Source of the DNA: Calothrix sp. NIES-4105
GTDB taxonomy: Bacteria; Cyanobacteriota; Cyanobacteriia; Cyanobacteriales; Nostocaceae
DNA length: 64,000 bases
NCBI RefSeq assembly: GCF_002368415.1
Contig: NZ_AP018290.1
Location: forward strand, 4,601,614-4,665,613
Direction: 5' to 3'
Under the pieces are notes generated by a model that was given only the letters and a program-made list of their open reading frames with translations, ran no database searches and was not told where the DNA came from. The position numbers and the translations under genes are program-made. Every line of letters begins with the position of its first letter. Positions within the stretch are counted from its first letter, which is position 1. This document shows positions 29,384 to 39,010 of the stretch, piece by piece.

Positions 29384-29880
29384 TAAAATAACCCTAGTAA
29401 TTATAGAAATTACAATTTTTCGGTCGAGACAACACCAAAGCCTGCCGAGAAACACCTATTTACACGTCAAATTCACTCAAGAAGGAAGTTACGGGGTTTG
29501 TAAACAATTAAGCCACTTCAATTCGATTGGTAATCTCGAACCACATAGTAGGATGGATTATCCAATATAAATGGTCAAAAGCAATTATGTTACTCATACT
29601 ATAGTAATATGCCTTAAGGAGGATAACAATTTTGTTTTCTAATATACGTATAATTACGTAATTGATAGAAAGTTTATGTATTTTTATGTATATACCTTAA
29701 GCTTTTGAAATCATCTGACTATTGAAAAAGTCGATTTTTGCAGCCCTGGATACTTGTATCAGGATTTTGCGGCGCCAACTAAGATTTCCGAGATATTAAA
29801 GAAGTCGGGAAGCTGACCACCCGCAAGAGCAAAAATAAAGGTAAAAATATAACTACCCATACAACCGTTATGAACATAAA
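29384..29880. other. Divergent region upstream of hybrid kinase and moaE
   Basis: About 500 AT-rich bases. TTAAGGAGGATAACAATTTTG (29612 onwards) has a strong ribosome-site-like AAGGAGG but leads only to a few codons, so I do not call a gene. One GGCGCC at about 29771. No Moco-riboswitch signature was recognised. Confidence 0.4.
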
Positions 29881-30375
29881 ATGAATCCAGGTGTAATATC
29901 TACCTATACCTCAGCAAAGCGCCATAAAGAGGACAGTTTTGCAATCAGCTTCGCACCGTTGTCTTTAGTAGAAATTTATGAATTAGCCTCAGACTCTAAA
30001 AATGGCGCCGTAGTTACAATGAGTGGCACGGTTCGCAATCAAACCGACGGAAAACCCGTAATCTGCCTTGAATACCAAGCATACGAACCGATGGCGATGC
30101 AAGTGTTTTACCAAATAGCGTCTCAAATTCGCTCGCTTTGGCCAGACGTTAACCGCGTAGTTATCCATCACCGGATAGGGCGCCTCGCTATCGGAGAAAT
30201 CAGCGTTTTAGTTGCAGTTGGCTGTCCTCATCGTTCGGAAGCATTTGAAGCATGTCGCTACGCCATTGATACCCTTAAACACAATGCTCCTATATGGAAA
30301 AAAGAATTTTGGGAAGATGGTACGAGTAATTGGGTTAGTATTGGCGCCTGTGAACAGTCAGATGGCGCGTGCTAA
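29881..30375 (+). CDS. moaE: Molybdopterin synthase catalytic subunit MoaE
   Basis: 164 residues. MoaE with MoaD converts precursor Z (cPMP) to molybdopterin. Family signs: GAVVTMSGTVRNQTDG, LEYQAYEPMA, HHRIGRLAIGEISVLVAVGC, PHRSEAFEACRYAIDTLK and APIWKKEFW with the catalytic lysines. The last 16 residues (SNWVSIGACEQSDGAC) lie on a 27-bp segment found again 3.93 kb downstream. The 3' end overlaps the convergent nuclease gene by 18 bases. No moaD or other moa gene is adjacent in the window. Confidence 0.94.
   Translation: MNPGVISTYTSAKRHKEDSFAISFAPLSLVEIYELASDSKNGAVVTMSGTVRNQTDGKPVICLEYQAYEPMAMQVFYQIASQIRSLWPDVNRVVIHHRIGRLAIGEISVLVAVGCPHRSEAFEACRYAIDTLKHNAPIWKKEFWEDGTSNWVSIGACEQSDGAC
30324..30350 (+). 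repeat. 27-bp direct repeat, left copy (inside moaE)
   Basis: GAGTAATTGGGTTAGTATTG followed by GCGCCTG, inside the final codons of moaE. The right copy is at 34255-34281, 25 of 27 bases identical. It may be a recombination or attachment site flanking the six-gene block. Confidence 0.85.
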
Positions 30376-30984
30376 CCGCTTGAGTATTTTTAAAACCTCA
30401 TTCAGATTATTTCGATATTGAGAACGAGTGGTAAAAATATCAGAAATGCCATACTGTTTTCCAGAGGTTTTCACAAACAAAAAACTACTACCATTCGTTA
30501 CCATCCCATAAAGTACTTGGCTTGGGTCAGGATTTGCTGCCATATAAGCCAGTGCTTGAGGTATAGCCACCTCCAAATCAAAAATAGTCTTTTTCGACTC
30601 AATCAGAACAATCCACAATTTCGTTTGCAAAACTAGCGCATCAATCCGTCCACGCAAAATTTCGTCGTTATCTCCAACTGCTTCAACTTCAACAGAAACT
30701 TCTGTTTTAAATTTATAAGGCGCCTGATAAAAACCTGCAAGTTCGAGCAAAGGAGACAGCACGACCATTTTTACAGTTTCTTCTAAAAGAACTCCATCTG
30801 AAATTTGATACAGATAATTTTGCCGTACTTCCTCTAGTCTTATTTGTTCCGCTTGACTCAATGTAGGTAGTTCAGTAATCCACTCTGTAAAAAACTCGCT
30901 GTCCCTAGTTAATGTCAACCCGAATTTTTCCTCACAATTACGAAAAGTCGTAATCTCATCCGTAACAGCTAGAATTTGAGTCAT
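30358..30984 (-). CDS. PD-(D/E)XK nuclease-like (HsdR-N-like) protein
   Basis: 208 residues. Core pattern: SPLLELAGFYQAPYKFKTEV, then GRIDALVLQTKLWIVLIESKK (D...E-x-K) and AIPQALAYMAANP, as in the N-terminal nuclease of type I restriction HsdR subunits. Cyanobacterial proteins like this are often annotated restriction endonuclease subunit R although they are free-standing. No helicase part and no modification partner is nearby. It overlaps the 3' end of moaE by 18 bases and is the left-most gene of the direct-repeat-bounded block. Catalytic residues look intact; target unknown. Confidence 0.72.
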   Translation of the reverse strand: MTQILAVTDEITTFRNCEEKFGLTLTRDSEFFTEWITELPTLSQAEQIRLEEVRQNYLYQISDGVLLEETVKMVVLSPLLELAGFYQAPYKFKTEVSVEVEAVGDNDEILRGRIDALVLQTKLWIVLIESKKTIFDLEVAIPQALAYMAANPDPSQVLYGMVTNGSSFLFVKTSGKQYGISDIFTTRSQYRNNLNEVLKILKRLARAI

Positions 30985-31044
30985 GATTAAGTAGAAGCAA
31001 TTGTTCCTATATAACTATATAGTATATTAATATTTGGTAATCCC

Positions 31045-31359
31045 TTAACTATTACCGTTACTTGATTGTCCGAGCAAATATTCCCAAACGCGGCGTATCT
31101 CAGATTGAAACACTTGGCGGTCACGTTCAGCATTTTGAGTTATCAGGCGCAAAGCTAATTGATGGTCGCGCGCAATATCTCGCAACTGGGCAACGGTTTG
31201 TTCTAAACTCGCGGTTCTTTGGCTCGTGGTGCGAACTTCCACCCTGATACCACTTTCAATTGTGCGCGCTAAGTCAATTTCGTCTCCTAGCGCTTCTAAT
31301 CGACGGTCGATATCTTCGAGGCGCCCGGTAATGTCTTGTGGTTGGTCTGCGTTCGTCAT
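31045..31359 (-). CDS. Coiled-coil hypothetical protein (104 aa)
   Basis: Not recognised to family. Nearly the whole chain is a charged heptad-patterned helix (ITGRLEDIDRRLEALGDEID, TASLEQTVAQLRDIARDHQL), ending WEYLLGQSSNGNS. No cysteine, no membrane helix. It follows the nuclease gene's start by 61 bases on the same strand, so it would be transcribed just before it. It could be a partner or structural adaptor. Confidence 0.68.
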   Translation of the reverse strand: MTNADQPQDITGRLEDIDRRLEALGDEIDLARTIESGIRVEVRTTSQRTASLEQTVAQLRDIARDHQLALRLITQNAERDRQVFQSEIRRVWEYLLGQSSNGNS

Positions 31360-31438
31360 AAAAAAATACTTCTATTTTTTTGAAACTAAAAATAAATAAA
31401 CCGCTTCTAAAAATCTAGGAAAATCTAGTTTCCTCAAT

Positions 31439-31497
31439 CCAAGTCCACGGTGTAACTTACTTTGACCCAGAATGGAAACGCTACTAAGTAGACTTGG
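31439..31497 (-). ncRNA. Candidate guide-RNA-like hairpin at TnpB 3' end
   Basis: CCAAGTCTAC (31497-31488 on the minus strand) can pair with GTGGACTTGG (31448-31439), a 10-bp stem with one G-U, spanning the last codons and the stop of the TnpB-related gene. A second short pairing (AACTAGATTTTCCTAGATTT) follows. Reprogramming/omega RNAs of TnpB overlap the ORF 3' end in just this way; here it is only a structural hint. Confidence 0.35.
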
Positions 31498-32989
31498 AAC
31501 AAGCTCGACGTTCAGCTTTTACACTTACTTGCTCAACCTGAACCTTGACCACCATTCCCCAGTTAGGTATGCTGAAATAGTCGTGCCGAGACTTGACTAT
31601 GGCAGCAGTCAAAGTTAATTTATTCAATTTCGACCAACCGCTCCATACGTGTTTTCTCGGATTCACTCCAAGATAAGCGGACACGGATGCGGGTAATCTC
31701 TCAGACAGATTCATTCCCCTTCTAGCTATTACCAATGCAGCTACAATATCACTACTTAAACCATACATTCGCGAATATTTTACTAATCCAATAATTGAAG
31801 TATAAGCAGCATTTCTTTTATACAGACTAATTCCTCGGTTAGAAAGTATTGATTCAAGTAATTGATACAACTTACTGTATGCAAAACTTGACAGCATTCT
31901 TGCATACTTTCTACCCTTTTCCCGCAATGATTCTTTCTTTTTGGAAAAGTCCAATTCCTCGCAGACGACAGGACTTGCATATTTGGTAGCGAGATTTGAT
32001 AGTTCCAAACAAGCGTTAACTAATTGCTCTTGATTAAAATTTCTTCCTAACCCTAATAACAAGGGAATAGTACCACAGTCAAATAAATTACCACAGGCAT
32101 CTACATAAGCCCATCCTATAGAATCAGGATTAATGTCTATACCAATGGCACCGTATTGAATTGGTTTACTGACTTTTTCCACGGGCTTTGGTGTAAATTG
32201 GACACCTACAACCCAACGATTATTTTTTCTGAAAAAGTGCCAAGTTTTAGCTCCTTCTTCTGGGAACCTATTAATATTTCTATCAAAGTTACCTATTTCA
32301 GTTTCAATGTACTTACCAAACCGCTCCTCCAGACAATAAGGAACTCTGAAGCAAATTTTATTACCGTCGTATTGACAAACTTGATTACCAAAACTTTCAT
32401 CCTTTGAACCAACAATATAAATTTCACTGCTTGAAACTTTTACCCGTATTGGCGCCGTTTTTAGATGAGCGATTTTTTTCTCAAGCACATATATGTAACG
32501 TTTCTTATGATGAATCTGGAACCGTATTGCGTGCCAGTTAGAACGACCAGTACTTAAATCACAGGATAGCGGAATTTTGCATCCTGTCTTAGAGTTCTGC
32601 CAATTTTTCTTAGCATAAAATTTTTGGCTGTCGGATAACCGTTTTAAAGCATTTTTTAACCAAATATTAGCTGATTTTAATTTTCCCTCTAATTGCTTAA
32701 TGTGATTTTTTCTACATTCTCTTGCTGAATCAACTTTACCATTCGCCAGTGTAATTACTCCGTTTGCGTGCCTTTTACTTAAACCGTACTTTTTTTGCAG
32801 GTGAGTATTAAATTTACCCAATTTCAATTCAAAATCCTTGGAGGATAAAATAGCATCAACAGTCTCACAAACTGCTTGCTTGAAGATAGGGGAAAAGGCA
32901 TTAAGAAACATTTCAAAATCGGTGAAACCAAGATGGTTCATTTCCGATTCTTTGGTTGGCAGACCTTTTACGTAGGTAATTGTTGACAT
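31484..32989 (-). CDS. TnpB-related RuvC-like nuclease
   Basis: 501 residues. The RuvC triad seems complete: D285 in GAIGIDINPDSIGWAYVD, E344 in PVVCEELDF, D414 in GLSSDIVAALVIARRG. Between motifs II and III runs NAAYTSIIGLVKYSRMYG; the CxxC zinc ribbon of classical TnpB is missing. This is the pattern of proteins annotated IS200/IS605 accessory TnpB-related. The N-terminal half is basic (RKNHIKQLEGKLKSANIW). There is no TnpA Y1 transposase next to it. TnpB relatives are RNA-guided endonucleases; this subgroup is little studied. It could be an immobile, domesticated nuclease or the homing engine of the block. Confidence 0.82.
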   Translation of the reverse strand: MSTITYVKGLPTKESEMNHLGFTDFEMFLNAFSPIFKQAVCETVDAILSSKDFELKLGKFNTHLQKKYGLSKRHANGVITLANGKVDSARECRKNHIKQLEGKLKSANIWLKNALKRLSDSQKFYAKKNWQNSKTGCKIPLSCDLSTGRSNWHAIRFQIHHKKRYIYVLEKKIAHLKTAPIRVKVSSSEIYIVGSKDESFGNQVCQYDGNKICFRVPYCLEERFGKYIETEIGNFDRNINRFPEEGAKTWHFFRKNNRWVVGVQFTPKPVEKVSKPIQYGAIGIDINPDSIGWAYVDACGNLFDCGTIPLLLGLGRNFNQEQLVNACLELSNLATKYASPVVCEELDFSKKKESLREKGRKYARMLSSFAYSKLYQLLESILSNRGISLYKRNAAYTSIIGLVKYSRMYGLSSDIVAALVIARRGMNLSERLPASVSAYLGVNPRKHVWSGWSKLNKLTLTAAIVKSRHDYFSIPNWGMVVKVQVEQVSVKAERRACSKST

Positions 32990-33095
32990 GCACGCACCTG
33001 GTTTTGTGTCATTGTACTGATAGCTTTTTTATCTATTGGCACTTGCCTGTAGCGATTCCTCGTTACAAAGTGCCTTTTTGCGTCTTCTAGTACTA

Positions 33096-33119
33096 TACGC
33101 TATTCACGTATTATATTTG
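33096..33119 (-). promoter_or_regulatory. TATAAT plus TACG-N7-CGTA dyad ahead of TnpB-related gene
   Basis: On the minus strand: TATAATACGTGAATAGCGTA. A perfect -10 hexamer leads into the dyad TACG-N7-CGTA. It overlaps the stop codon of the HTH gene and lies 107 bases ahead of the TnpB-related start. A second copy is at 33438-33461. Confidence 0.5.
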
Positions 33120-33413
33120 ATCAATAAATTCAGATAAATCACTTTTTTTTACAAGTTCTCGAATTTGAAGAATTGTATCTTCCTTTTTTAGGGTCGTGAG
33201 AACATAGTCAGGACGGTTAGAAAAATCTGACCCCCAACCTTCGACAGTACGAGCCGAAAGCCCTGTAGCTTTTGCTAGAAGCTTTACGCACGTTTTATAA
33301 TACCCACGCTCACCAGGAGCAGGCGCCTTTAGCCATTTATGACAAAACTCAAGAGGTTCCAATTGTCTTTGTTTGAAATCATTGCCTATATAATGCACTT
33401 TTAAGGCAAGCAT
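33111..33413 (-). CDS. Small HTH-like protein (100 aa)
   Basis: Family not recognised. The middle reads CVKLLAKATGLSARTVEGWG, a helix-turn-helix-like core (AKATGLSARTVEGW), followed by SDFSNRPDYVLTTLKKEDTI. The N-terminal third is basic and aromatic (KVHYIGNDFKQRQLEPLEFC). Two copies of a TATAAT + TACG-N7-CGTA element sit directly ahead of it and at its 3' end; it is a natural candidate for the protein that binds them. Lies in the direct-repeat-bounded block. Confidence 0.65.
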   Translation of the reverse strand: MLALKVHYIGNDFKQRQLEPLEFCHKWLKAPAPGERGYYKTCVKLLAKATGLSARTVEGWGSDFSNRPDYVLTTLKKEDTILQIRELVKKSDLSEFIDQI

Positions 33414-33437
33414 ATAAAGTTCCTGTTGCTGCTTTTT

Positions 33438-33461
33438 TACGCAATCTACGTATTATATGTC
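33438..33461 (-). promoter_or_regulatory. TATAAT plus TACG-N7-CGTA dyad ahead of HTH gene
   Basis: On the minus strand: TATAATACGTAGATTGCGTA. It starts 25 bases ahead of the HTH-gene start. It matches the 33096-33119 copy at 19 of 24 positions, with the TATAAT and both TACG/CGTA arms kept. Confidence 0.55.
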
Positions 33462-33634
33462 GAATATGGCAAAGCTTTTAATTCATCAGTAATATTTATA
33501 CCCTCGTACCGATCGTAACTTACTTGAACGGTCTGGGTACGAGGATTTTCAAGATTTCCAAATCAAAATACTAGGAAATCTTATGATTTTAGGTAACTAC
33601 TAACAACCCACTTACCACTATGGGTAAATGAGTA

Positions 33635-33862
33635 CTAAATGGATTTTTCTTGTTGCTCAAGCAATTCGATAATCATTCCTCTAACAAGGTGATACATAGG
33701 TACGCCTTTGTTAGCTGCAAATTCTTTTAGTGCTTGCTTCTCATGCTTGTGCAGAAACACTTTTAACAGTTCTGCATCTGGGTGCCCGACTGTAATCATT
33801 TCTGTATCCTCTAAACGTGGTACATGAGAAGTATAACCTGAACTGCCGTTTTCATGTACCAT
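33635..33862 (-). CDS. Ribbon-helix-helix-like protein (75 aa)
   Basis: 75 residues. The second half (AELLKVFLHKHEKQALKEFA, then NKGVPMYHLVRGMIIELLEQ) has the short strand plus two helices of CopG/Arc DNA-binding proteins. The first 25 residues are polar and possibly disordered. It begins 20 bases past the stop of the next RHH gene on the same strand, so both are one operon. No toxin partner is recognised. Confidence 0.68.
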   Translation of the reverse strand: MVHENGSSGYTSHVPRLEDTEMITVGHPDAELLKVFLHKHEKQALKEFAANKGVPMYHLVRGMIIELLEQQEKSI

Positions 33863-33882
33863 GATAGAGGAATTTTTTGTCT

Positions 33883-34083
33883 TTAAGTTTTGTAACTCCT
33901 TGCCGATTGGCTCAATAACTTTTTTGGGGGTTCTATATACCCCTTCTGTACAAGTACCTCTTTTACTAGCTCCGAAAGCAAGTTACTTACTGTTCGCCCT
34001 TCTGCGTCAGCCCACTTTTCAAGGGCTTCCTTGGTTTGGTCGTCCGTGACAAACATTACTCGTGGTCTTTTTCCTGCTGGCAT
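33883..34083 (-). CDS. CopG-type ribbon-helix-helix regulator (66 aa)
   Basis: 66 residues from ATG 34083 (MPAGKRPRVMFV); an in-frame ATG at 34104 would add seven residues. RPRVMFVTDDQTKEALEKWA gives the strand and first helix; EGRTVSNLLSELVKEVLVQK gives the second helix. Such proteins are common in cyanobacteria as antitoxin or copy-control-like repressors. Two TTCTC-N-GAGAA dyads lie directly upstream and look like its own operator. Confidence 0.78.
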   Translation of the reverse strand: MPAGKRPRVMFVTDDQTKEALEKWADAEGRTVSNLLSELVKEVLVQKGYIEPPKKLLSQSARSYKT

Positions 34084-34122
34084 TTTAAATATTTTTAAAC
34101 ACATACACCAAAACTTTAAACA

Positions 34123-34135
34123 ATTCTCTGAGAAT
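34123..34135. promoter_or_regulatory. ATTCTC-N-GAGAAT dyad, copy 1
   Basis: Perfect 13-base dyad ATTCTCTGAGAAT, 40 bases ahead of the RHH start at 34083. A second copy of its core is 77 bases further out. A likely repressor site, probably autoregulatory. Confidence 0.5.
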
Positions 34136-34200
34136 ATGGCTACTAATTGTCTATTTATTTTGCAATAAAAGTAAATAATATATTGATAAATAGTTGATAA

Positions 34201-34211
34201 TTCTCAGAGAA
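34201..34211. promoter_or_regulatory. TTCTC-N-GAGAA dyad, copy 2
   Basis: TTCTCAGAGAA, same arms as the 34123 copy with a different central base. Spacing of 77 bases between centres (about seven helical turns) would suit looping or cooperative binding. Confidence 0.45.
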
Positions 34212-34255
34212 ATAGTGTACCTTAAACGCATGGACGTAAAACGAACATAGAAAAG

Positions 34256-34318
34256 AGCAATTGGGTAAGTATTGGCGCCTGCTCTAAATGTGATGAGCGA
34301 GTATATATTAATATTTAA
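34256..34318 (+). pseudogene. moaE 3'-end remnant / right direct repeat
   Basis: In the frame matching moaE it reads SNWVSIGACSKCDERVYINI and stop. The first nine codons equal those of intact moaE (30325-30351) in amino acids and differ only at three third positions (AGT/AGC, GTT/GTA, TGT/TGC). This indicates descent from a functional moaE rather than a chance match. No upstream moaE sequence precedes it. The 27-bp repeat proper is 34255-34281. Confidence 0.7.
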
Positions 34319-34438
34319 GAACTCCATAGTTTGTTTATGTTAAAATATCTTTCACGTTTATCATGCGGCAAAGTTTCTGCAGATGATTCATGTTGATTCA
34401 AGTTGTTTATGCGGCGAGCCAAGTAGCTCCGAAGGAGA

Positions 34439-35260
34439 ATGGCTCATGTTGATATTCCCAACCAACAAAGTTTAGACGTTAAAGCTACGTTAACTGAAAT
34501 TCAAAAATTGCAAACACGCACGTATCGTGATCATTGTGGAAAATTCTATACAGAAGGCGTGAGAAATTTTACCAAAGCCGTTGATAATGGTTTTGATATT
34601 AGCGCCATTATATATAGTGAAAAGCTACTAACAGCACCGCTAGCTCGTAAGTTAGTCCGTAATCAGCGCCGTTCTGGTATTTTAACTATAAATATTACAC
34701 CTGAACAATTTAGACACATCTCATGTACTGAACGTGCGTCTGGTGTTGGCGCCATTGTTCGACAGCGATGGTCTAATTTAAAACAGATTTCACTTCTAAG
34801 TTCTTCATATTGGGTGGCATTAGAAACTGTACGTTCACCAGGAAATTTGGGAACTTTGATTCGCACGTCCGAAGCTTTTGGTGGCGCCGGATTTATTTTT
34901 ATTGGTAATAAAATAGACCCATTTGACCCTGATGTTGTGCGAGCATCTATGAGTTCGCTTTTTAGCCAAAAGTTAGTACGCACTAGTTACCGCGCGCTTG
35001 GTCATTGGTTGCGGCATCAAGATTGTACGGCAATTGGCGCCTCTCCAGATGGAAGTGTTGATTTAGATAAGTTTAATTATCAGCAGTCAACGCTACTTTT
35101 CCTTGGTGAAGAACGTCAAGGACTTACCCAACAACAGCGTGAATTATGTCAACACCTCGTTCGTATTCCAATGATAGGCGCCGTTGACTCGCTTAATCTT
35201 GCTGTTGCTGGTAGTTTATTAATGTACGAAGTATATAAATCACAAAAACTGTGTGTTTAA
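34439..35260 (+). CDS. TrmH/SpoU-family RNA 2'-O-methyltransferase
   Basis: 273 residues with the trefoil-knot SPOUT motifs: ETVRSPGNLGTLIRTSEAFG (motif 1), LLFLGEERQGLTQQQ (motif 2), RIPMIGAVDSLNLAVAGSLL (motif 3). The N-terminal 90 residues (REKKYRDHCGKFYTEG-like TYRDHCGKFYTEGVRNFTKA) are the substrate-binding extension seen in 23S rRNA or tRNA ribose methyltransferases. Uses S-adenosylmethionine. The ribosome site AAGGAG at 34432-34437 is only one base from the ATG, which is unusually close; a later in-frame TTG is possible. Confidence 0.9.
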   Translation: MAHVDIPNQQSLDVKATLTEIQKLQTRTYRDHCGKFYTEGVRNFTKAVDNGFDISAIIYSEKLLTAPLARKLVRNQRRSGILTINITPEQFRHISCTERASGVGAIVRQRWSNLKQISLLSSSYWVALETVRSPGNLGTLIRTSEAFGGAGFIFIGNKIDPFDPDVVRASMSSLFSQKLVRTSYRALGHWLRHQDCTAIGASPDGSVDLDKFNYQQSTLLFLGEERQGLTQQQRELCQHLVRIPMIGAVDSLNLAVAGSLLMYEVYKSQKLCV

Positions 35261-35297
35261 ACACAAATAAACATAGATAAACACAGGTAAACACAAC
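35258..35297. repeat. 10-bp tandem repeat overlapping a stop codon
   Basis: Four units of TAAACACARA-like sequence at 35258, 35268, 35278 and 35288. The first unit supplies the TAA stop of the methyltransferase gene. Confidence 0.85.
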
Positions 35298-35308
35298 AAT
35301 TTGTTATA

Positions 35309-35358
35309 TATATATCTAATTGTAGTGGTACCACCGTATCTCTACAATTAGATATATA
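35309..35358. terminator. Long hairpin after methyltransferase gene
   Basis: TATATATCTAATTGTAG (35309-35325) is a perfect match to the complement of 35342-35358, with a 16-base loop holding TGGTACCA. Strong hairpin but without a G/C-rich stem; could act as terminator or be a small palindromic element. Confidence 0.55.
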
Positions 35359-35491
35359 CTTAATTTTCTAATGCGTGTTGTAAGTGTCCATAGTATAGGC
35401 AATTGCAAAGCGTTAACATTAAAATCAAGTTTTATGTGTTCTGAATCAGATTTTATTTATTTTTTCTACTGTTAGCACATTTGCAATCCGC

Positions 35492-38089
35492 ATGTCCAAA
35501 AATGTTGCATCTACGTATAACCGCAAAGTACCTCTAATTCTAGTTTTTGTGGTACCTTTTGTGTTACAAATTTTTGTGGCAGTTGGAGTCACTGGGTGGG
35601 TTTCATTATCTAACGGGCAAAAAACGGTTAGCGAACTGACTATTCGACTTCGAGAAGAAGTAACACAGCGAGTAACTCAAGGACTTCGACAATATTTAGA
35701 AAGCTCGCAAGTTGTGAACCGGATGAATGAGGAAAATATCAGGTTCAATCATTTAGATTTGCAAGACCCAAACAGCATTACTCGAACATTTTGGAAACAA
35801 AGGTTTTTGTTTGATAGGGTATGTGGTTCTGCTATGTATTTCGGCAACTCAGAAGGAGAGTTTACAGGTTTAGGATTACAAGAAGACGAAAACTGGAGAA
35901 TTGGCAGGTCTGGAAAGTCTACAAATGGCATATTTTATAGATATGCAACTGATAACCAGGGTAATGCAACAAATTTGATTTTGAAGTTACAAGAATACGA
36001 CCCTAGAGTTAGACCTTGGTATCAAGATGCGGTGCAAGCTGGTAAGTCAGTTTGGAGTAGACCTTATCCAGATTTTATTCGACAAGAGATGAAGGTTGCT
36101 TTAGCTCAACCTATTTATGATGATTATGGAAAATTGCAAGGAGTGATTGGAGTTGATTGTTTGCTAACTTCAATTGGTGAATTTCTTGAAGATATAAAAG
36201 TTGGGAATGGCAAGACTTTTATTATAGACCGTTCCGGTAAACTAATTGCAGCATCAACTGGCAAAATTCCTTTCAAAAAACACGTGAAACAAGTTACAGC
36301 AAGTGAAAGCGAAAGTTCTGTAGTTGCTGCGACTGGTAAGTTTCTTTCGCAAAGTTTTAGCGATTTGAGTCAAATTAAAACCGAAAAACAACTAGATTTT
36401 TACTTGAATGGGCAGCAAAAACTTATACAAATAACACCTTTTCAAGAAAAATTTGGTTTAGACTGGTTAATTGTAGTCGTCGTTTCCGAAGCTGATTTTA
36501 TGGGAACGATTAATCAAAATACTCAGATAACTATCTTATTATGTTTTGCTGCTTTGGCTTTAGCAATAGGAGTTGGGATTATAACTTCTCGTTGGTTAAT
36601 TCGTCCAATTTGGCGAACTATTAATGCAGCACATGCTTTGTCGCAAGGAAATTGGCACTCTCGTGTTCCAGAATCTAAAACTTATGAATTAGCGTTACTA
36701 GCGAAAGCATTTAATCACACTGCACAACAATTACAAACTTTTTTCTCAAATTTAGAGTACAATGCTAATCATGATGCTTTAACTGGTTTACTTAATCAAA
36801 CTGCCTTCAAGCAAAAGTTAGAAGAGGCAATTAAACGACGTGATAGTGCTGCAACTATCAGTAATAGTAGCAAAAGTTATGCTTATCATTTTGCTGTTTT
36901 ATTTCTCGACTTAGATTATTTTAAGTTGATTAATGATAGCCTTGGGCATATGATGGGAGATGAATTATTAATCGAGGTAACAAAAAGACTACAAAGCTGC
37001 ATTCTTCCTAACGATACAATTGCACGCTTTGGTGGTGATGAGTTTCTTATCTTACTAGAGAACATTACAAATATACATGATGCGATTTATACTGCCGAGC
37101 GTATTTTAAAAGTGTGCCAGCAACCATTTTACTTAAGCGATAAAAAAGTTTTTATTACAACTAGTATCGGTATTGTTCTTAGTACGTGTGAATCCCAAAA
37201 TCCTTTAGATTTCTTGCGTAATGCCGATATTGCCTTATACTGTTCTAAATCTGATGGTAAATGTAGATACCGTGTTTTTGATGCCCAAATGCACGCAGAA
37301 GCTGTAAATAGATTGCAGTTAGAAATGGATTTAAGACGTGCAATCGAAAACGAAGAATTTATTGTTTATTACCAACCGATTATCGATATTTATATAAATC
37401 AAATTATTGGATTTGAAGCATTAGTGCGGTGGCAACATCCTGGGGGAGATATGATATCCCCTGCTAAATTTATCCCTATTGCTGAAGAAACTGGGTTGAT
37501 TGTCAAAATCGATGCGTGGGTATTACATGCTGTTTGTTGTCAAATGCGAATTTGGCAACAGTTAAACCTGCCTCAAAATCTCTTCGTCAGTGTTAACTTC
37601 TCTAGTAAACAACTTTTGCAACCTGATTTACTCGAACAAATTGAAAACATTATTACTAACACTGGTGTAGATACATACAAAATTAAAATTGAAATTACTG
37701 AAACAATTTTAATTCATTATCACGAGTCTACGAAAACCAAGCTTAAACAGATGCAGGATTTAGGACTTTCGTTAATTATTGATGATTTTGGAACAGGATA
37801 TTCTTCTTTAAGTTATTTACACCAATTTCCATTTTGTAAACTCAAGATAGATTATTCTTTTATTTCTTGTTTAACAGAAAACGATAGAACTAGGGCAATT
37901 GTCGAAGCAATGATTGTACTCGCACACAAGTTAGAGATGGATGTAGTGGCAGAAGGTGTTGAAACTACTGAACAGTTAGACATATTGCACTCGATTGGCT
38001 GTCAACAAGTTCAGGGCTACTTATTTTCGGCGCCTGTAACCCACACTCAAGCAACAGCATTATTAACAGAAAATTTTACCAAAAACTAA
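35492..38089 (+). CDS. dCache-HAMP-GGDEF-EAL c-di-GMP enzyme
   Basis: 865 residues. Membrane helix 1 (about 12-35), periplasmic dCache sensor (about 40-330: RVRPWYQDAVQAGKSVWSRP, DDYGKLQGVIGVD), helix 2 (about 345-367), HAMP (about 368-420), GGDEF (about 430-605), EAL (about 615-862). GGDEF is intact (RFGGDEFLILLE) but the product-inhibition RxxD is LPND, so I-site feedback is probably lost. EAL is intact (GFEALVRWQHPGG, DDFGTGYSSLSYLH), so phosphodiesterase activity is expected. It may make, break, or do both to cyclic di-GMP in answer to an outside ligand. Confidence 0.94.
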   Translation: MSKNVASTYNRKVPLILVFVVPFVLQIFVAVGVTGWVSLSNGQKTVSELTIRLREEVTQRVTQGLRQYLESSQVVNRMNEENIRFNHLDLQDPNSITRTFWKQRFLFDRVCGSAMYFGNSEGEFTGLGLQEDENWRIGRSGKSTNGIFYRYATDNQGNATNLILKLQEYDPRVRPWYQDAVQAGKSVWSRPYPDFIRQEMKVALAQPIYDDYGKLQGVIGVDCLLTSIGEFLEDIKVGNGKTFIIDRSGKLIAASTGKIPFKKHVKQVTASESESSVVAATGKFLSQSFSDLSQIKTEKQLDFYLNGQQKLIQITPFQEKFGLDWLIVVVVSEADFMGTINQNTQITILLCFAALALAIGVGIITSRWLIRPIWRTINAAHALSQGNWHSRVPESKTYELALLAKAFNHTAQQLQTFFSNLEYNANHDALTGLLNQTAFKQKLEEAIKRRDSAATISNSSKSYAYHFAVLFLDLDYFKLINDSLGHMMGDELLIEVTKRLQSCILPNDTIARFGGDEFLILLENITNIHDAIYTAERILKVCQQPFYLSDKKVFITTSIGIVLSTCESQNPLDFLRNADIALYCSKSDGKCRYRVFDAQMHAEAVNRLQLEMDLRRAIENEEFIVYYQPIIDIYINQIIGFEALVRWQHPGGDMISPAKFIPIAEETGLIVKIDAWVLHAVCCQMRIWQQLNLPQNLFVSVNFSSKQLLQPDLLEQIENIITNTGVDTYKIKIEITETILIHYHESTKTKLKQMQDLGLSLIIDDFGTGYSSLSYLHQFPFCKLKIDYSFISCLTENDRTRAIVEAMIVLAHKLEMDVVAEGVETTEQLDILHSIGCQQVQGYLFSAPVTHTQATALLTENFTKN

Positions 38090-38094
38090 ACTAC

Positions 38095-38124
38095 TTTACT
38101 TGTTCCCACAAATATGTGTATAAT
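38095..38124 (+). promoter_or_regulatory. Promoter of Mn riboswitch transcript
   Basis: TATAAT at 38119-38124 with a weak -35 TTTACT at 38095-38100 (18-base spacer). Start of transcription would fall near 38131, right at the base of the riboswitch P1 stem. Confidence 0.55.
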
Positions 38125-38134
38125 TGCCTATATA

Positions 38135-38260
38135 TGAAGGGGAGTAGCTGCTGACGAAATCAAAGATTAGTCAGTACATCTGAATCAACATACTGGTGAT
38201 GAACCTGGTTCAGACGGCATACAGTAAGTTTAAAAATTTTTAATGCGAGCGAGACCTTCA
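38135..38260 (+). ncRNA. yybP-ykoY (Mn2+) riboswitch aptamer
   Basis: P1 pairs TGAAGG (38135-38140) with CCTTCA (38255-38260). The two hallmark loops are present: GGGGAGTAGCTGC directly after P1 and GCGAGCGAGACC directly before the closing strand. Between them is a variable arm with ACCTGGTTCAGAC and CATAC. This class binds Mn2+ and stands ahead of Mn exporters, including TMEM165/GDT1 genes, just as here. Confidence 0.88.
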
Positions 38261-38284
38261 CTGAGTTCACACAACCTAAACGTG

Positions 38285-38350
38285 TGGAGCTTGGTGAGGT
38301 CTTTGTTAGAATTCATCAAGCTCCATGCCGCAACATGAAAAAAGGAGCTT
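38285..38350 (+). promoter_or_regulatory. Riboswitch expression platform sequestering the ribosome site
   Basis: CAAGCTCCA (38317-38325) has two perfect partners: TGGAGCTTG upstream (38285-38293) and GGAGCTT downstream (38344-38350), the latter containing the Shine-Dalgarno AAAGGAG (38341-38347) of the transporter. Only one pairing can form. Also GTGAGGTC (38294-38301) can pair with GACCTTCAC (38253-38261), linking it to P1. This is consistent with translation control by metal binding. Confidence 0.7.
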
Positions 38351-38356
38351 TATAGA

Positions 38357-38974
38357 GTGCTAACAGCTTTTACTGCGGGATTATCGATAATTACAGTTTC
38401 GGAGCTAGGTGATAAAACCTTCTTTATTGCGATGTACTTAGCAATGCAACACTCGCGACGGTTGGTGTTTACCGCAGTAACAGCAGCATTAGCGGCAATG
38501 ACAATACTTTCTGTGGCATTAGGACAAGTTGCATCGCTCTTACCAGCCAGTTTTGTACATCATGCGGAAATAGCATTATTCTTGGGCTTTGGGCTGAAAC
38601 TAATTTATGATGCCTATAAAATGCCAGTGGTAACAAGCTGTGACGACGTACTCGAAGAAGCAAAAGAAGCAGTTGTCAAAGCAGAAGCACAACTTAATAA
38701 CAAAAATGCTTGGGCAATTTGGTTTGAAGGATTTTTGTTAACTTTTGTTGCTGAGTGGGGAGACAGAACCCAACTTGCGACTATCTCACTCGCAATTAAT
38801 AACAACCCGTTTGGTTTAGCATCTGGCGCCGTTTTAGGACACGCTATTTGTGCAGCAATTGCCGTGACCTGTGGCAAAATGCTTTGTGGACGCATCAGCG
38901 AGCGCCAGCTAACTTTTATTGGTGGCTGTTTATTTATATTGTTTGGAATAATAGCGGTGTTTGAAAAAGCTTAA
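38357..38974 (+). CDS. TMEM165/GDT1 (UPF0016) family Mn2+/Ca2+ transporter
   Basis: 205 residues, start GTG 38357 with AAAGGAG ten bases upstream. Both family motifs E-x-G-D-(K/R)-T are seen: ELGDKT at residues 16-21 and EWGDRT at 133-138, each in a helix of one half of an inverted repeat; six membrane helices in all, with a charged loop at about 96-115. Cyanobacterial members (Mnx) move Mn2+ out of the cytoplasm into the thylakoid lumen. The Mn riboswitch directly upstream supports Mn as substrate. Confidence 0.93.
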   Translation: MLTAFTAGLSIITVSELGDKTFFIAMYLAMQHSRRLVFTAVTAALAAMTILSVALGQVASLLPASFVHHAEIALFLGFGLKLIYDAYKMPVVTSCDDVLEEAKEAVVKAEAQLNNKNAWAIWFEGFLLTFVAEWGDRTQLATISLAINNNPFGLASGAVLGHAICAAIAVTCGKMLCGRISERQLTFIGGCLFILFGIIAVFEKA

Positions 38975-39010
38975 GTCAGTTGTAGGGTCGTCAGTGACGA
39001 CCTTACCCTA

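What the first reader, a model, noticed from the sequence alone, without database searches (positions are those of the whole stretch)
30324..34281. Six-gene minus-strand cassette bounded by direct repeats of the moaE 3' end
The last codons of moaE recur 3931 bp away (30324-30350 and 34255-34281, 25/27 identical). In the moaE frame both copies give SNWVSIGAC and differ only at three synonymous third positions, so the second copy comes from a once-functional moaE, perhaps of another strain. Everything between is on the opposite strand: PD-(D/E)XK nuclease, coiled coil, TnpB-related nuclease, HTH and two RHH proteins. This looks like an element integrated at a protein-gene 3' end that rebuilds the gene, but no integrase is present. 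It could be a small nuclease-based defence or homing cassette.
Basis: partly seen in the sequence, partly recalled or inferred. Interest (0 to 1): 0.75.

Follow-up and report, generated by a model that had tools for sequence, protein, structure and literature searches.

The report
Layered mobile DNA beside moaE
The repeated end of the moaE gene is real and may be the scar of a mobile element, but the six genes between the copies have separate histories, one part being a common jumping gene, so they are not one working cassette.

Summary
The repeat is real: 25 of 27 bases, none expected by chance, and two places in the 12-Mb genome at up to 3 mismatches of a 26-base tail pattern. It differs at two synonymous positions, not three. 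The six genes are not one cassette. (1) The PD-(D/E)XK gene is older: it follows moaE intact in two and as fragments in two of six congeners. (2) CC, tnpB, HTH, RHH2, RHH1 and the second repeat are absent at this locus in G002, where PD-(D/E)XK and the SpoU ('trmH') gene are neighbours; here they lie between 13-bp direct repeats. (3) tnpB and HTH form a nested IS200/IS605-like element, about 31400-33606. Relatives of the RHH pair occur in plasmid-like elements. Elsewhere moaE's 3' end does look like an integration site: G009 has 26 kb with a large serine recombinase between two moaE tails, and three genomes of another genus hold differing DNA between moaE and a decayed tail. Best reading: an eroded remnant of a moaE-targeting element; the att-relic step is inferred. 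Homing or defence as a unit is not supported.

The parts
29881..30375 (+). moaE, molybdopterin synthase catalytic subunit; native copy, its tail continues into TGTGAACA like that of the congeners
   Evidence: Pfam MoaE 1.4e-39; about 88% identical to G002-G006 and 81% to G001; tails
30324..30350 (+). repeat copy 1, inside moaE
30358..30984 (-). PD-(D/E)XK (HSDR_N-like) gene; older layer, one of a large paralogous family
   Evidence: Pfam HSDR_N 1.4e-6; same place in G002, G003, fragments in G001, G005; 22 matches in own genome
31023..31035 (+). 13-bp direct repeat TATATTAATATTT, left edge of the block absent from G002
   Evidence: longest shared word of the two 60-bp flanks is 13; 0 of 500 shuffles reach it, largest 10; blastn edges against G002
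31045..31359 (-). coiled-coil-like protein (CC), multi-copy family in this genus
   Evidence: only weak, sub-threshold coiled-coil matches in Pfam; 9 matches in own genome and matches in 5 of 6 congeners
31400..33606 (-). nested IS200/IS605-like element: RE ...TTTTTAGAAGCGG(T), LE TTGTTAGTAGTTACC directly after GTGGG
   Evidence: shared edges in paralogs
31484..32989 (-). TnpB-like protein, 501 aa, no CxxC zinc finger seen by eye; candidate RuvC residues D285, E344/E345, D414 (assigned by eye)
   Evidence: NCBIfam guided_TnpB 3.4e-7 and TIGR01766 7.1e-5, both below cut-off; paralogs; alignment
33111..33413 (-). 100-aa putative HTH protein inside the IS; 93% identical copy beside the tnpB paralog on contig C3
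33635..33862 (-). RHH2; 82% and 70% copies at own 5.82 Mb, 42-45% relative in the G004 insert at hupS-hupL
33883..34104 (-). RHH1, ribbon-helix-helix (RHH_5)
   Evidence: Pfam 1.8e-8; 40% relative upstream of an RHH2 copy at own 5.82 Mb
34255..34281 (+). repeat copy 2, orphan moaE-tail segment; 22 bp inside the right edge of the block
34304..34316 (+). 13-bp direct repeat TATATTAATATTT, right edge of the block
   Evidence: blastn edge at 34304 against G002
34439..35260 (+). SpoU-family methylase ('trmH'); accessory, close orthologs in 2 of 6 congeners (G002; truncated in G005), both beside moaE
   Evidence: Pfam SpoU_methylase 2.2e-31
35492..38089 (+). GGDEF-EAL protein, found at this place only in this genome among the seven stretches compared
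38357..38974 (+). neighbour of moaE kept in all seven genomes of the genus (looks like a UPF0016/Gdt1 family transporter; name recalled, from no call)

Best explanation
The interval between moaE and its conserved neighbour (38357) is an accretion and deletion hotspot. Shown: it holds at least three layers, an old PD-(D/E)XK gene, an RHH1-RHH2-CC block that carries a 27-bp moaE 3'-end segment at its edge, and a TnpB-type IS200/IS605-like element (with a putative HTH gene) inserted in that block. Inferred: the block is what remains of a plasmid-like integrative element whose recombinase used the moaE 3' end as attachment site, copy 2 being its relic att segment. Its recombinase and replication genes were lost by deletion, the IS then broke up the rest, and in G002 the same stretch may have been removed by deletion between the 13-bp repeats. 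As it stands it should be immobile except for the IS, which would need a transposase in trans.
For: Layering: at this locus G002 has moaE-PD(D/E)XK-SpoU with neither block nor second repeat; G003 moaE-PD(D/E)XK; G001 and G005 carry fragments; G004 and G006 have neither gene there. IS edges shared with paralogs. moaE 3' end as integration site: G009 has 26 kb between two moaE tails, starting with a large serine recombinase (Resolvase 1.4e-27, Recombinase, Zn_ribbon_recom); its first moaE copy has an altered tail, the displaced one resembles the tail of G409 of the same genus. In G079, G126 and G144 (one genus) about 15.0, 2.6 and 6.1 kb lie between moaE and a decayed moaE tail; G079's stretch has no blastn match in those of the other two, and the shared downstream block starts at that tail. 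RHH pair: relatives beside a DUF3987/PriCT_2 primase, actin-like and serine recombinase genes in a 14.8-kb insert between hupS and hupL of G004, in a related gene set in G005, and more weakly on a 24-kb Fischerella plasmid. G009 and G004 recombinases and primases are homologous (33% and 30% identity).
Against: No recombinase or primase was recognised in the block. Copy 1 is the native tail and copy 2 has no significant moaE-like flanks (7/100 and 21/100 shuffles), so they are no clear attL/attR pair, and 27 bp is shorter than the 58-78 bp tails of G009 and G079. In G009 and G079 the displaced tail starts near the PIWKK codons; here homology starts some 30-40 bp later. Comparison with G002 cannot say whether the block was inserted here or deleted there. 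RHH2-like hits in G342 and G025 show no element genes around them; tblastn of RHH2 found nothing in plasmids or phages at its limits. No G009-like recombinase lay beside moaE in the 30 loci kept from 28 positive of 291 genomes, each with flanks of at most 1.5 kb (G009 itself is not in the listed hits of that sample). Downstream of G009's copy 2 nothing matches the 5.2-kb G409 stretch, so that far edge is not proven.
Confidence: 0.55

Rival explanations
1. The RHH1-RHH2-CC block, already holding a moaE-tail segment, was inserted in this lineage 0.66 kb from moaE and made a 13-bp target-site duplication; the closeness to moaE is a by-product of the hotspot.
For: Empty site in G002; exact 13-bp direct repeats at both edges.
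Against: No transposase for the block and no terminal inverted repeats seen by eye at the edges; the moaE segment in the block would lie near moaE by chance; several congeners show deletions at this locus.
Confidence: 0.25
2. Copy 2 is filler DNA copied from the nearby moaE during break repair, then mutated twice.
For: Only 27 bp, no significant flanking homology; GGCGCCTG end as in moaE of this genome and of G002-G006.
Against: Both differences are synonymous third positions and occur in other moaE alleles (GTA, AGC); elsewhere moaE tails mark likely element edges.
Confidence: 0.12
3. A nuclease-based homing or defence cassette of six genes that moves as a unit.
For: Two nuclease-like genes and putative DNA-binding proteins on one strand.
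Against: Genes have different histories: PD-(D/E)XK without the rest in G002 and G003, tnpB as separate IS copies (one with HTH), an RHH pair without the others at 5.82 Mb.
Confidence: 0.04
4. The repeat is a chance match helped by the over-represented GGCGCC word.
For: 86 GGCGCC in the window against 3.6 expected from base composition.
Against: 0.00 expected in 100 shuffles (which keep dinucleotides, not the GGCGCC excess); two places in 12 Mb at up to 3 mismatches of the 26-base pattern, none for the reversed control pattern.
Confidence: 0.01

Closest known systems
Recombinase-bearing DNA elements within genes of heterocyst-forming cyanobacteria (survey PMC4874684; passages seen only)
   Same: Large serine recombinase at the element's edge in G009, duplicated segment of a protein gene; the RHH2 relative in G004 lies in an insert with such a recombinase at hupS-hupL, genes named in that survey.
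   Different: The surveyed elements interrupt genes; at moaE the gene stays readable, and no recombinase remains in the window. 'moaE' has 0 occurrences in that paper's main text.
IS200/IS605 family TnpB elements
   Same: TnpB-like protein, copies with a common conserved right end, left end directly after TGGG in the window and in L050, after TGGGG in L008.
   Different: No TnpA recognised in the element; no CxxC zinc finger seen; carries a putative HTH gene; below the NCBIfam cut-offs.
Integrative elements that attach at protein-gene 3' ends and restore the gene (recalled as a kind, from no call)
   Same: Duplicated gene tail; in G009 a changed but readable moaE end.
   Different: In the window only a 27-bp segment without moaE-like flanks and without an integrase.

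Membership tests
Integrative element at the moaE 3' end | duplicated target segment at both element ends | tested here: inconclusive
   27-bp segment duplicated, but copy 2 has no significant moaE-like flank
Integrative element at the moaE 3' end | integrase or recombinase gene in the element | tested here: not met
   none recognised among the six proteins
Integrative element at the moaE 3' end | single-copy (empty) site in relatives | tested here: met
   one copy each in the roughly 19-kb stretches of G001-G006
Integrative element at the moaE 3' end | all cargo gained and lost together | tested here: not met
   PD-(D/E)XK present without the rest in G002, G003
IS200/IS605-type TnpB element (31400-33606) | multiple copies with common ends | tested here: met
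   four further full-length tnpB copies at 78-86% in own genome, one with an internal stop, plus fragments; common right end in these four and others; left end matched in L050 and L008 only
IS200/IS605-type TnpB element (31400-33606) | insertion after a fixed short target without duplication | tested here: inconclusive
   TGGG before the left end in the window and L050, TGGGG in L008; left end not found in L048, L049, L051 or L007 by the motif used; duplication not tested by script
IS200/IS605-type TnpB element (31400-33606) | Y1 transposase TnpA in cis or trans | not tested
   none recognised in cis; own genome not searched for TnpA
RNA-guided TnpB nuclease | RuvC D-E-D triad | tested here: inconclusive
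   candidate residues by eye; no PDB sequence match up to E 0.1
Heterocyst excision element | interrupts a gene and is excised in heterocysts | tested here: not met
   moaE is intact here; excision itself not testable with these tools
Anti-phage defence system | match to a complete known system | tested here: not met
   only PD_DExK, a sub-level mad2 and Cas12f matches for two of six proteins

The most novel reading that the evidence does not exclude
The 3' end of moaE is a recurrent attachment site, in at least three cyanobacterial genera, for plasmid-like elements (serine recombinase, primase, RHH pair) related to heterocyst excision elements; some bring their own moaE ending and so rebuild the gene. 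The window holds a fossil of such an element, with an att core that still matches moaE at 25 of 27 bases.
Probability: 0.4. Interest if true: 0.55.

Novelty: new member of a known kind. Interest (0 to 1): 0.4.

Why it matters
If right, moaE joins the protein genes whose 3' ends serve as docking sites for mobile DNA, with a likely intact example (G009) that could be tested for excision, and with a graded series from intact element to fossil. It also warns that a run of same-strand genes between two repeats need not be one cassette: comparison of seven genomes separates at least three layers here.

Tried and rejected
Six genes as a unit: rejected by their separate distributions. trmH as ancestral neighbour: rejected. 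Copy 2 as a decayed longer moaE tail: flank alignments not significant. More elements like G009's beside moaE: none in the 30 recombinase loci kept, flanks at most 1.5 kb. A second moaE tail in more genomes: of 388 genomes, 220 match the tail pattern and, by my reading of the table, three rows show two matches (G000, G009, G219). G219 has two near-full-length moaE genes on separate contigs and was dropped. The pattern misses 168 genomes and decayed tails such as that of G079. RHH2 in other collections: 44 stretches matched in genome contigs but none was confirmed; none in plasmids or phages by tblastn, while a DNA search found one plasmid with a match over the RHH1 part (68.7%). The copy-2 segment has no exact match in viral contigs. 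Rfam: no match at gathering scores in 29400-39000. Papers: moaE + serine recombinase + cyanobacteri, and moaE + attB + integrase, gave 0 papers; one search listed one paper, not opened; of PMC4874684 only passages were seen. No structure was predicted.

Full report
Observation. The direct repeat is exactly where reported and is 25/27 identical. A 26-base degenerate pattern of the segment has two places in the 12.04-Mb genome at up to 3 mismatches, and 100 shuffles of the window give none for the 27-mer. The copies differ at two positions, both synonymous third positions in the moaE frame, not three. Copy 1 belongs to the native moaE: it continues into TGTGAACA like the congeners. Copy 2 is embedded in other DNA; anchored alignments of its flanks to 34 moaE tails are not significant (7/100 and 21/100 shuffles reach the best score).

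Comparison within the genus. In all seven genomes (own, G001-G006) the gene corresponding to window 38357-38974 lies downstream of moaE. From the end of the moaE match to this gene the distances are about 370 bp (G004), 379 (G006), 645 (G001), 1111 (G003), 1265 (G005), 2303 (G002) and 7982 (own), computed by me from the coordinates. PD-(D/E)XK follows moaE intact in G002 and G003, in pieces in G001 and G005, and is not found there in G004 and G006. The SpoU gene has close orthologs (84-86%) only in G002 and G005 among the six congeners, both beside moaE; the other four have only distant or short matches (24-40% identity, best E 3.9e-19). None of the six has CC, tnpB, HTH, RHH2 or RHH1 at E 1e-4 in the roughly 19-kb stretch fetched around moaE, nor a second moaE tail at up to 8 substitutions.

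Edges of the block. Against G002 the own sequence aligns up to 31035 and again from 34304. A 13-bp word, TATATTAATATTT, stands at 31023-31035 and 34304-34316; no shuffle of the two 60-bp flanks in 500 reaches 13 (largest 10). This fits an insertion with target duplication in this genome or a deletion between repeats in G002; the data do not decide. I lean to deletion, because several congeners show losses at this locus and because it explains why a moaE tail lies near moaE.

The IS. The four full-length tnpB paralogs and several fragments share one end at window 31400 (L048, L049, L050, L051, L054, L068 and, over shorter stretches, L007, L008); the fragments in L052 and L053 do not reach it. 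Two loci, L050 and L008, share the other end, TTRTYAGYAGTWAC after TGGG or TGGGG. Own genome: four further full-length tnpB copies at 78-86% identity, one of them with an internal stop, and fragments. The HTH gene is inside these ends and recurs at 93% beside the tnpB paralog on contig C3. So tnpB and HTH are a separate insertion downstream of RHH2. The TnpB-like protein matches NCBIfam guided_TnpB below its cut-off (3.4e-7) and Cas12f models weakly. RuvC residues were assigned by eye.

The RHH pair. At own 5.82 Mb there are two tandem pairs of small genes whose second members match RHH2 (82%, 70%); the first member of the first pair matches RHH1 (40%), that of the second pair does not match it. 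They lie beside a NifU-domain, a HypF and an AIRS-type gene and are followed by an AAA_25 helicase-like and a Shedu-like gene. RHH2 is rare: 3 of 60 genomes (own, G004 and a weak G025), 4 of 388 (own, G005, G316, G342). G004 holds it in a 14.8-kb insert between hupS and hupL with serine recombinase, DUF3987/PriCT_2 primase and actin-like genes. G005 holds a related gene set. A 24-kb Fischerella plasmid shares some of these genes and has a DNA match over RHH1 (68.7% over 176 bp) and a weak RHH2-like protein (27%; E from a small database), although tblastn of RHH2 against plasmids found nothing. G342 and G025 show nothing of the kind; the 4-kb G316 contig was fetched but not annotated.

moaE as integration site elsewhere. 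G009: moaE is followed at once by a large serine recombinase; 26 kb away lies a second moaE tail. The first copy has an altered ending, the second resembles the ending of moaE in G409, a genome of the same genus with one moaE. This is what integration with rebuilding of the gene end predicts. Downstream of copy 2 no match to the 5.2-kb G409 stretch was found, so the far edge is not proven. G079, G126 and G144 (one genus): moaE and a block beginning at a decayed moaE tail are shared at 92-95%, while about 15.0, 2.6 and 6.1 kb lie between; G079's stretch has no blastn match (E 1e-10) in the other two, and the ORF lists of G126 and G144 differ, though these two were not aligned to each other. In a survey of 291 genomes with the G009 recombinase, 28 had relatives; none of the 30 loci kept had moaE in its flanks of at most 1.5 kb.

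Conclusion. The repeat is meaningful and the idea of a moaE attachment site gains independent support from two other lineages. The six-gene cassette as a unit does not. The window most likely holds an eroded, IS-interrupted remnant of a plasmid-like integrative element, next to other accessory genes. The first part (layering) is shown; the link between copy 2 and an element's att site is inferred.

Noticed in passing
window, whole: GGCGCC occurs 86 times against 3.6 expected from base composition, GCGATCGC not at all; a HIP1-like palindrome of another sequence (HIP1 recalled).
   Followed up: partly
G009:C1 2110043-2136475 (L045, L046): 26-kb stretch with a large serine recombinase between two moaE tails, with a changed moaE ending.
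   Followed up: partly
L193 722-15513 (G004): 14.8-kb insert between hupS and hupL with serine recombinase, primase, actin-like and RHH2-like genes.
   Followed up: partly
L192 9579-14626 (own 5.82 Mb): Two tandem pairs of small genes with RHH2 copies, then an AAA_25 helicase-like gene and a Shedu SduA_C protein, beside NifU-domain and HypF genes.
   Followed up: partly
window 33818-33861: GGTACAT...ATGTACC inverted repeat across the RHH2 start, kept in the first own copy and nearly in the second; a hairpin-like TTTACC...GGTAAGTGGG after the stop recurs in the first own copy and, with changes, in G004.
   Followed up: no
own genome, L007 and L008: Second TnpB-like group (37-38% identical) with G in place of the candidate RuvC-III D414.
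   Followed up: no
window 30358-30984: The PD-(D/E)XK family has 22 matches in this genome and matches in 50 of 60 genomes searched.
   Followed up: no
G079, G126, G144 moaE regions (L047, L185, L186): A decayed second moaE tail marks the shared right edge of differing intervening DNA.
   Followed up: partly
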